Source: a virus
Length of the DNA stretch: 50,515 nucleotides
Virus record (IMG/VR): IMGVR_UViG_3300010885_035038
Location: 1 to 50,515 of that record
Strand: one strand, 5' to 3'
A program made the translations under genes and the position numbers. The notes under the pieces were generated by a model. The model was not told where the DNA came from. It made no database searches and saw only the letters and a program-made list of their open reading frames with translations. Within the stretch, counting starts at the first letter, position 1; the number at the start of each line of letters is the position of its first letter. Of this stretch, positions 12,235-33,830 are shown piece by piece.

Positions 12235-13707
12235 CTATTCTTCAATACCTTGCTGAATAATGCGAGTAACTTGCTCTTCGCCGTATCCGCCATTAGGTAA
12301 CTCCGTTAGACTTTGAGCCTTTTCACCAAAAATTTGGGATAAAACTCCGCCCCCATTTTTAGCTTCAACTGTCATCCTAACGTATGATGATGTATCTTCC
12401 AAATCCTTCATTGTCTTCAATAGTTTAAACAACCTATCTACTTCTTGACTAGTGTTGGGGTCTGGATATCCACCATTCATTTCTTCCGCAAACCTTGCAA
12501 ATGCTATGCGTTGCCCTTGCATTTCAATTATTGCGTTAAGTAATGATTGCAGTTGTTCTTTAGTTTTTACTTCTACTGGCAAACTAAACGCACACGTATT
12601 ACTTACCTTAAACGCGGGGCAATTAGAGGCCACAAAACATGTATCGCACATACGCAAACTTGTAGCATTAGAACGAATCAGCGGAACATCACGAATGATA
12701 TCTATACCGTTTTCATCTTTCTCAACAACCGTCTTAATCTCTGTTCCAAATACAGGTAACATCATCATGTCTTGAGGATTTCGCGCTTCAAACTTCCGCA
12801 GTTGACCCCCCTTACTATCATGTACAACAGGGGTGTTTTCCGAGTTATCGCTACCCTGCACATTTACCGAGCTATCATATATGTCGGCATCGTCTGCGTT
12901 GTGGCTAGTCATGTTAAACCTTTTCTCATACTGGTCGTATGACCATAGGGCTAACTTAGCCACTTCTACTGGGTCGTCACCTACTATTTTATCAAAATCA
13001 AGCCCAGCCTTCTCATAGACTGCCTTATATCTTGGACGAGCTTGGTCTTTCATCTTCTTTGGGTAGCGTACTAATTTAGTCCCATCCCATACAATGGTTT
13101 CACCGCGCATCATAGGGGACAACCACGACTGTGTAGAAGCTGTTGCTACTTGAATTTGTCTAAGGTTATCGGGTTTAGCACACGCTAACGCATGGAATGT
13201 TGTACCAAACTGTGTAGTCAATGCTCTCGTTTTTGCAGCTAATGACACATCCGCTTCAATAATGGCGTAAGGTATCGCAATATCTTTATACTGCTGACAC
13301 ATATCCACAATTTCCGCATACGAATGGTCTGCACGTATCGTAGCCCAAAACTTTTCTTCATCAGACCATGCAGCTTCACGTTGTAATTTAATTGCATGCT
13401 TATCTAAAATAGGATGGTCAATCTCAATAAATGAATTAATCCTATCCAGGTTATGCGCCAAAAAATCTTCATACGCTATTGCAAATGTTTCTAAATCATC
13501 TGCGCTTATTTGGGCATTTTCAGGCAAACCTGGATGCACATAAATGTTCATATAATCTGGAAAATAATTATCCAAAAAATAACGTTTATTTTTAGGTAAC
13601 CCTCGTTGTGTTAATCTCCAAAAGGATACGCCAACATTGCGTACCTTCATAGACTCCATAATAACTCGGTTACTTGGAACATCTGCACCTAAGTAAATTA
13701 GCTCCAC
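12235..13707 (-). CDS. Large zinc-knuckle protein of unknown function, 490 aa
   Basis: I do not recognise a named family. The first 260 residues alternate strands and helices (ELIYLGADVPSNRVIMESM, VGVSFWRLTQRG, IPYAIIEADV) in a way that could be a barrel-like enzyme. Near residue 350 comes CDTCFVASNCPAF followed by SNTCAF, a four-cysteine metal site. A helical region follows. The GTG start is preceded by GAGG at good spacing and overlaps the HAD-like gene by 10 bp. The company of nucleotide and sugar enzymes suggests a role in base, nucleotide or tRNA metabolism; that is inference. Confidence 0.6.
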   Translation of the reverse strand: MELIYLGADVPSNRVIMESMKVRNVGVSFWRLTQRGLPKNKRYFLDNYFPDYMNIYVHPGLPENAQISADDLETFAIAYEDFLAHNLDRINSFIEIDHPILDKHAIKLQREAAWSDEEKFWATIRADHSYAEIVDMCQQYKDIAIPYAIIEADVSLAAKTRALTTQFGTTFHALACAKPDNLRQIQVATASTQSWLSPMMRGETIVWDGTKLVRYPKKMKDQARPRYKAVYEKAGLDFDKIVGDDPVEVAKLALWSYDQYEKRFNMTSHNADDADIYDSSVNVQGSDNSENTPVVHDSKGGQLRKFEARNPQDMMMLPVFGTEIKTVVEKDENGIDIIRDVPLIRSNATSLRMCDTCFVASNCPAFKVSNTCAFSLPVEVKTKEQLQSLLNAIIEMQGQRIAFARFAEEMNGGYPDPNTSQEVDRLFKLLKTMKDLEDTSSYVRMTVEAKNGGGVLSQIFGEKAQSLTELPNGGYGEEQVTRIIQQGIEE

Positions 13708-33558: not shown

Positions 33559-33591
33559 TTTCCAAGCAACGCTATCAATTTCACAGCACCC

Positions 33592-33664
33592 CCCCCCCTG
33601 CTGGATTCGAACCAGCGCCACGCAGGGTAGAAACCTGCTGCTCTATCCCCTGAGCTAAGGAAGC
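33592..33664 (-). tRNA. tRNA-Arg (anticodon TCT), unusual acceptor stem
   Basis: The D-arm, anticodon arm (GCAGG TTTCTAC CCTGC) and T-arm (GCTGG TTCGAAT CCAGC) are good, with anticodon TCT reading AGA and AGG. The acceptor is odd: 5' GCTTCCT faces AGGGGGG, giving two G:T wobbles and a G-G mismatch at the first pair. The 3' side continues as a ten-G run (33589-33598 on the plus strand is all C). CCA is not encoded. It may be degenerate or misread. Confidence 0.7.
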
Positions 33665-33665
33665 T

Positions 33666-33749
33666 TGGTGGAGCTGCAGAGAATCGAACTCTGGTCCTAA
33701 AGCGTACCGTCGTGCGGTCTTACGCCCTAGTCGAAACCTATCCAGCCCC
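33666..33749 (-). ncRNA. tmRNA-like RNA reduced to the tRNA-like domain (84 nt)
   Basis: Not a standard tRNA: no D-stem and no usable anticodon stem-loop. The 5' end is GGGGCTG followed by GATAGGTTTCGAC, and the 3' end is CAGAG TTCGATT CTCTG then CAGCTCC and ACCA. These are the conserved ends of actinobacterial tmRNA. The acceptor pairs nt 1-7 with 74-80 and includes G3:U, the alanine identity pair. A 10-bp helix (nt 20-29 with 44-53) in the place of tmRNA P2 closes onto a 14-nt loop; the mRNA-like region and pseudoknots are absent. CCA is encoded. It should be charged with alanine and bind SmpB and EF-Tu but cannot encode a tag. It might be a decoy or a decayed tmRNA. Confidence 0.7.
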
Positions 33750-33750
33750 G

Positions 33751-33830
33751 TGCTGCACCTTGGAATCGAACCAAGCATGCCATAGGCCACGGATTTACAG
33801 TCCGCTTCCCCACCTTGGGGAATGTGCAGC
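33751..33830 (-). tRNA. tRNA-Tyr (anticodon GTA)
   Basis: Acceptor GCTGCAC pairs with GTGCAGC, the anticodon stem (GCGGA CTGTAAA TCCGT) presents GTA, and a long variable arm (GCC TAT GGC) marks a class II tRNA as expected for bacterial tRNA-Tyr. The T-arm has TTCGATT. Discriminator A; CCA not encoded. One base separates it from the tmRNA-like RNA. Confidence 0.85.

What the first reader, a model, noticed from the sequence alone, without database searches (positions are those of the whole stretch)
33666..33749. 84-nt tmRNA-like RNA that keeps only the tRNA-like domain
Seen: the 5' end (GGGGCTG, then GGTTTCGAC) and the 3' end (TTCGATT loop, CAGCTCC, CCA) are those of actinobacterial tmRNA, but only 84 nt lie between them. 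nt 20-29 pair with nt 44-53 in one unbroken 10-bp helix (two G:U), in the place of P2, capped by 14 nt. There is no room for an mRNA-like region or any pseudoknot. Known: AlaRS recognises G3:U70, and SmpB binds the tmRNA D-loop region and acceptor arm. Inferred: the RNA could be charged and could recruit SmpB and EF-Tu but could not supply a tag, so it could be an anti-trans-translation decoy. Decay of a phage tmRNA is the main alternative. Full-length tmRNAs are known in some actinophages; I know of no described TLD-only form.
Basis: partly seen in the sequence, partly recalled or inferred. Interest (0 to 1): 0.88.

Follow-up and report, generated by a model that had tools for sequence, protein, structure and literature searches.

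The report
Tag-less tmRNA family in phages
Many unrelated bacterial viruses carry a tiny, strongly conserved RNA that copies only the tRNA-like end of the host's ribosome-rescue RNA (tmRNA) and lacks its message part, so it probably interferes with or short-cuts the host's rescue of stalled ribosomes; until now this had been noted in one phage.

Summary
The element is real. Window 33749-33666(-) matches Rfam tmRNA RF00023 at 70.9 bits, with 303 model positions (tag, pseudoknots) absent. It is neither decay nor an assembly error. Scans of IMG/VR gave at least 244 viral contigs with the same 62-91-nt element; 168 analysed loci fall into 81 unrelated gene neighbourhoods. Only 7 of ~85,000 prokaryote species have one. 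P2 covaries at 7 of 7 pairs. G3:U70 occurs in 68/68 unique copies found without constraining either base, while the next pair takes four forms. Records tested lack SmpB and rarely have a full tmRNA. Syntenic relatives of the window phage keep it with compensating P2 changes. Streptomyces and Stenotrophomonas phage isolates carry it unannotated. The breadth, invariant alanine identity and conserved capped P2 appear undescribed. Best reading: an alanylated, SmpB-dependent, tag-less tmRNA that blocks or replaces host trans-translation.

The parts
33666..33749 (-). TLD-only tmRNA-like RNA (whole element, 84 nt with encoded CCA)
   Evidence: Rfam RF00023 70.9 bits; family model R1 77.0 bits, E 4.9e-19 (the window is one of the 80 sequences R1 was built from)
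33743..33749 (-). acceptor stem 5' strand GGGGCTG; G3 at 33747
   Evidence: sequence; pairs 7/7 with 33670-33676
33670..33676 (-). acceptor stem 3' strand CAGCTCC; U70 at 33672
   Evidence: sequence; G3:U70 in 68/68 family members found without constraining it
33666..33669 (-). discriminator A73 (33669) and encoded CCA
   Evidence: sequence; A73 in 128/128 unique relatives
33730..33742 (-). D-loop region with GGTTTCGAC (no D stem), the SmpB-contact region in tmRNA; its last C also opens P2
   Evidence: sequence; SmpB contacts U17 and G19 (PMC8363625); TTCGAY in 51/68 relatives when not imposed
33721..33730 (-). P2 5' strand CTAGGGCGTA
   Evidence: 10 pairs with 33697-33706; family covariation
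33707..33720 (-). apical element AGACCGCACGACGG: A-rich bulge then CCG/CGG mini-hairpin
   Evidence: matches family motif AARnCC...GG; A29 and C33 at least 90% conserved in A1
33697..33706 (-). P2 3' strand TACGCTTTAG
33677..33693 (-). T arm CAGAG-TTCGATT-CTCTG
   Evidence: 5/5 pairs; helix 4 of A1 pairs in 99.8% of cells
33592..33663 (-). tRNA-Arg(tct), 2 nt downstream; same arrangement in relatives L104 and L131
   Evidence: ARAGORN; alignment
33750..33830 (-). tRNA-Tyr(gta), directly abutting the 5' end; absent from relatives L104 and L131
   Evidence: ARAGORN

Best explanation
It is a functional member of a widespread phage family of tag-less tmRNAs. The RNA is transcribed and end-processed like a tRNA (inferred). 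It is charged with alanine by host AlaRS through G3:U70/A73 (inferred from an invariant identity element), and bound by host SmpB at the D-loop and by EF-Tu at the acceptor/T arm (inferred by homology to the TLD). It then enters the A site of ribosomes stalled on truncated mRNA. With no resume codon and no tag, it can accept the nascent peptide but cannot direct tagging. The most likely net effect is dominant-negative inhibition of host trans-translation, by occupying SmpB and stalled ribosomes. The short P2 with its bulge and capped hairpin replaces the pseudoknot ring as a stable end. Shown: homology, architecture, conservation, phage restriction, single copy. Not shown: expression, charging, SmpB binding, physiological effect.
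For: RF00023 match. Family in at least 244 viral contigs, 81 neighbourhood groups, 7 of ~85,000 prokaryote species. Covariation score 0.661 against 0.160 shuffled, P2 7/7 pairs. G3:U70 68/68, acceptor 7/7 pairs in 68/68, pair 4:69 in four types; G3:U70 27/28 and A73 28/28 in a second free scan. D-loop TTCGAY in 51/68 when not imposed. No phage SmpB in 50 records, so host SmpB is the only candidate partner. Long tmRNA in only 2 of 79 records with a mini (Tomas, Riptide), and there the mini's D-loop is eroded. A TLD-only molecule strongly inhibits tmRNA (Mao 2009 as cited in PMC4131195). A truncated tmRNA with SmpB and EF-Tu was crystallised on the ribosome (cited in PMC8363625).
Against: No expression or biochemical data for any member. 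Inhibition reportedly does not need charging, so strict G3:U70 is not explained by titration alone. Some members (BRock, Riptide, Tomas, L358, L377) have altered D-loops. No recurrent neighbour gene points to trans-translation. The 2009 experiment was read only through citing papers.
Confidence: 0.55

Rival explanations
1. Tag-less ribosome rescue: the charged RNA with host SmpB takes the nascent chain on stalled ribosomes, which are then recycled (peptidyl-tRNA drop-off and hydrolysis) without a degradation tag, to the phage's benefit rather than as an inhibitor.
For: Invariant G3:U70 and A73 imply that charging matters, which rescue needs and titration does not; same homology evidence as the best explanation.
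Against: A TLD-only molecule inhibited tmRNA in E. coli (PMC4131195, PMC11915505). I know of no established step that recycles a ribosome holding peptidyl-TLD.
Confidence: 0.2
2. An alanine-accepting tRNA-like RNA for another purpose: Ala-tRNA-dependent transfer, or a decoy for a host RNase or defence system that recognises tmRNA or tRNA.
For: Acceptor, T arm and P2 are the most constant parts, while the D-loop varies in 17/68. About a fifth sit near tRNA genes; Streptomyces members sit in tRNA arrays near an RNA ligase.
Against: Retention of the tmRNA-specific GGNTTCGAC D-loop and P2 geometry in most members.
Confidence: 0.15
3. Decay product or assembly error of a full phage tmRNA.
For: Full tmRNAs are common in viral contigs; a few minis (Alone3, Tomas) look eroded.
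Against: Same short form in 81 unrelated neighbourhoods. Intermediate sizes are rare: 11 loci, against at least 120 for the mini pattern and at least 120 for the full-length pattern. Strong covariation; synteny with compensation.
Confidence: 0.03
4. Attachment-site fragment of an integrative phage.
For: tmRNA genes are common integration sites (PMC11915505).
Against: Both halves are present with covarying P2. Tyrosine integrase in only 9/51 records, none in the window record.
Confidence: 0.02

Closest known systems
Mycobacterium phage DS6A 'TLD only' tmRNA (tmID 11587)
   Same: [quoted passage not shown] proposed inhibitor by SmpB titration (PMC4131195)
   Different: A single case; its sequence was not held here, so shared apical motif and homology could not be tested
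Canonical one-piece tmRNA (Rfam RF00023), including phage tmRNAs of Wildcat, Bxz1 and Tomas
   Same: Acceptor with G3:U70 and A73, GGNTTCGAC D-loop, T arm, P2 starting at C20 and the GAC linker
   Different: No mRNA-like region, tag or pseudoknots; P2 closed by a conserved bulge plus mini-hairpin
CDS-less ~65-bp plastid tmRNAs of Mallomonadaceae
   Same: TLD without a tag reading frame (PMC11915505)
   Different: Organellar; only two sequences reported
Truncated tmRNA used in the SmpB-EF-Tu-ribosome crystal structure (ref. 15 of PMC8363625)
   Same: A tmRNA lacking the pseudoknot ring and mRNA-like domain that binds SmpB and EF-Tu on the ribosome
   Different: Engineered, not natural

Membership tests
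tmRNA (RF00023) | Covariance-model score above gathering | tested here: met
   70.9 bits against 47
tmRNA (RF00023) | G3:U70 and A73 in a 7-bp acceptor | tested here: met
   Sequence; family 68/68 G3:U70, A73 128/128
tmRNA (RF00023) | D-loop without D stem, GGNTTCGAC | tested here: met
   GGTTTCGAC at 33730-33738
tmRNA (RF00023) | mRNA-like region with tag reading frame | tested here: not met
   303 of 374 model positions skipped; 14-nt cap only
tmRNA (RF00023) | Pseudoknots PK1-PK4 | tested here: not met
   No room in 84 nt; the model positions that hold them are skipped
tmRNA (RF00023) | SmpB binding, alanylation, trans-translation | not testable with these tools
   Needs biochemistry
TLD-only tmRNA (DS6A type) | Little more than the TLD, in a phage genome | tested here: met
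   84 nt in a virus record; definition from PMC4131195
TLD-only tmRNA (DS6A type) | Homology to the DS6A sequence | tested here: inconclusive
   DS6A record not found by either accession tried
tRNA (Ala) | D stem and 5-bp anticodon stem with 7-nt loop | tested here: not met
   ARAGORN makes no call; 10-bp P2 with 14-nt cap, no D stem
Permuted (two-piece) tmRNA | Acceptor 3' part precedes the 5' part | tested here: not met
   5' and 3' halves in standard order; only RF00023 and tRNA matched

The most novel reading that the evidence does not exclude
Phages of many bacterial groups encode a dedicated class of alanylated, tag-less tmRNAs that work actively on stalled ribosomes (charging required) to take over or switch off host trans-translation: an RNA-only counter-measure with its own conserved apical module.
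Probability: 0.5. Interest if true: 0.88.

Novelty: new variant of a known kind. Interest (0 to 1): 0.74.

Why it matters
Trans-translation is near-universal and often essential in bacteria, and no common natural inhibitor of it is described in the papers read here. A compact RNA kept as a single copy in at least 81 unrelated phage neighbourhoods would show that phages routinely interfere with ribosome rescue. It would explain the odd DS6A case, give a natural template for trans-translation inhibitors, and make a direct test possible in Streptomyces phages that are already cultured. It also shows that standard annotation (ARAGORN; databases that reject truncated tmRNA, PMC11915505) misses the class.

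Tried and rejected
Ordinary tRNA: no ARAGORN call, no anticodon arm. Local deletion or decay: rejected by breadth, bimodal length and covariation. Attachment-site remnant: few integrases. Phage SmpB partner: none in 50 records. Recurrent neighbour gene: none; the best protein family reaches only 5 of 81 groups. Plasmids: no match to five diverse minis. Bacterial carriers: 1 of 296 genomes in the phylum of the Terracoccus carrier, that genome being the query itself. Sigma-70 promoter near the element: none found. DS6A sequence: not held under the accessions tried. Mao 2009 full text: not held. BLAST hits to T arms in phages such as Synechococcus S-CAM1, Pseudomonas SM1, Xanthomonas Rb1, Achromobacter JWDelta and Mycobacterium PegLeg scored only 23-38 bits with R1 and are not claimed as minis.

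Full report
OBSERVATION. On the minus strand, 33749-33666 reads GGGGCTG-GATA-GGTTTCGAC-TAGGGCGTA-AGACCGCACGACGG-TACGCTTTAG-GAC-CAGAG-TTCGATT-CTCTG-CAGCTCC-A-CCA. Rfam tmRNA RF00023 matches end to end at 70.9 bits (gathering 47), E 1.2e-25, skipping 303 model positions: the mRNA-like region and all pseudoknots. Folding energy is -32 kcal/mol, z = -2.75. ARAGORN finds only the flanking tRNA-Tyr (abutting) and tRNA-Arg (2 nt away). The window is a whole IMG/VR virus record of a myovirus-like phage: baseplate wedge proteins, DnaB-like helicase, DNA polymerase, UvsX-like recombinase, ribonucleotide reductase.

A FAMILY, NOT A DELETION. A second scan left the acceptor free (72 loci; a few are chance matches). 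A third fixed only the apical hairpin and T arm (95 loci). Together at least 244 viral contigs carry it; overlap between scans suggests about 160-190 loci for the first pattern alone, so that sample was most of them. With the first pattern plus A73, only 7 contigs among ~85,000 prokaryote species genomes match. Clustering by shared neighbouring proteins puts 168 loci in 81 groups, with no recurrent neighbour gene. Of 162 minis, 34 lie within 500 nt of a tRNA, 21% against 7.6% for random positions.

SELECTION. In 80 non-redundant members (A1) the four helices pair in 89.3% of cells, with a covariation score of 0.661 against 0.160 shuffled and 0.10-0.16 for slid controls; P2 shows changes on both sides at 7/7 pairs. 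The cleanest test is the scan that fixed neither G3 nor U70 nor anything 5' of the apical hairpin. Of 68 unique members (a few from cultured phages already fetched), 68 have 7/7 acceptor pairs and 68 have G3:U70, while the adjacent pair 4:69 is G:C 41, C:G 15, U:A 10 and A:U 2. The 5' end was placed where acceptor pairing is best, which favours full pairing but not a G:U at that one position. In the free-acceptor scan, 27/28 new unique members have G3:U70 and 28/28 have A73; the exception (L128) is a chance match across an ordinary tRNA. G3:U70 is the AlaRS identity element of tmRNA (PMC8363625). The D-loop TTCGAY is present in 51/68 when not imposed.

RELATIVES OF THIS PHAGE. L104 and L131 are syntenic relatives whose longer shared proteins are mostly about 50-77% identical to the window's. 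Both have the mini at the same place, 2 nt before the same tRNA-Arg(tct), with near-identical TLD arms and a rebuilt P2: window CTAGGGCGTA/TACGCTTTAG, L104 CTAGCAGT/ACTGTTAG, L131 with one U:U mismatch. tRNA-Tyr is seen only in the window phage. The window's DNA polymerase is closest, at about 40% identity, to Streptomyces phages GiJojo, pSt2308, Alone3, LuckySocke and BRock, the same phages in which BLAST and model R1 found the mini (GiJojo by BLAST only). In the six Streptomyces phages BRock, pSt2308, LuckySocke, Alone3, Tomas and Riptide it follows a tRNA-Val and is unannotated. Streptomyces phage Shaeky and Stenotrophomonas virus Jojan60 also have it (75.2 and 72.2 bits).

GENOMIC LOGIC. 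In 79 whole records that carry a mini by pattern or R1, RF00023 finds a single mini in 74 (it misses the ones in G025, G044, G365, Tomas and Riptide), and a long tmRNA only in Tomas and Riptide; permuted tmRNAs were not searched for. Tomas's long tmRNA is annotated with a tag. The minis of Tomas and Riptide have degenerate D-loops and lower R1 scores (43 and 53 bits). SmpB is absent from 50/50 records, so any SmpB partner is the host's. Tyrosine integrase is in 9/51 records and not in the window.

MECHANISM. By homology the RNA has what is needed for AlaRS, EF-Tu and SmpB and nothing needed for tagging. A truncated tmRNA with SmpB and EF-Tu has been crystallised on the ribosome (cited in PMC8363625), and a TLD-only molecule strongly inhibits tmRNA, chargeable or not (Mao 2009, cited in PMC4131195; also PMC11915505). 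I did not read the 2009 paper itself. Phage Wildcat's own full tmRNA is its most highly expressed lytic gene (PMC7474061), so titrating amounts are plausible. I therefore favour interference with host trans-translation. Because inhibition does not need charging but evolution keeps the charging element almost without exception, I think the RNA most likely acts inside stalled ribosomes as alanyl-RNA rather than as a passive sponge; this is inference. Tag-less rescue is the main rival.

NOVELTY. TLD-only phage tmRNA was reported once (DS6A, 2014), and CDS-less plastid forms in 2025. In the papers searched I found no report of a widespread family, of the apical module, or of these phages (bioRxiv and most subscription journals are not held). 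PMC11915505 screened RefSeq viruses but rejects truncated forms, and a phage survey used ARAGORN (PMC9004378), which misses minis. Hence a new variant of a known kind, with the breadth as the main advance.

LIMITS.

Noticed in passing
window 33591-33600: A run of ten G at the 3' end of tRNA-Arg(tct) leaves position 1:72 unpaired (G:G); possible homopolymer sequencing error or a strained tRNA. Relatives L104 and L131 have only five G.
   Followed up: partly
L308 and L310 (Streptomyces phages Tomas, Riptide): Phages with both a full tmRNA and a mini whose D-loop has eroded while G3:U70, P2 and the apical hairpin remain: a natural test of which parts are still needed.
   Followed up: partly
L166-L176: Rare intermediate elements of 94-124 nt with TLD ends and a larger insert; possibly separate mini classes with their own structures.
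   Followed up: no
L021, L044, L055, L105, L114: Shortest class (62-67 nt): P2 is a plain hairpin with no bulge or mini-hairpin.
   Followed up: no
   Followed up: no
L299:2445-2819 (Stenotrophomonas phage Marzo): Annotated 375-nt tmRNA overlaps tRNA-Leu and tRNA-Thr; annotation looks doubtful.
   Followed up: no
window 12235-13707 (-): Queuine tRNA-ribosyltransferase-like protein (PHROG 887), no Pfam hit; possibly a DpdA-type DNA-modification enzyme.
   Followed up: no
window 1-50515: GC content falls from 0.53 to about 0.33 along the contig, and the main genes switch from plus to minus strand near 10 kb.
   Followed up: no
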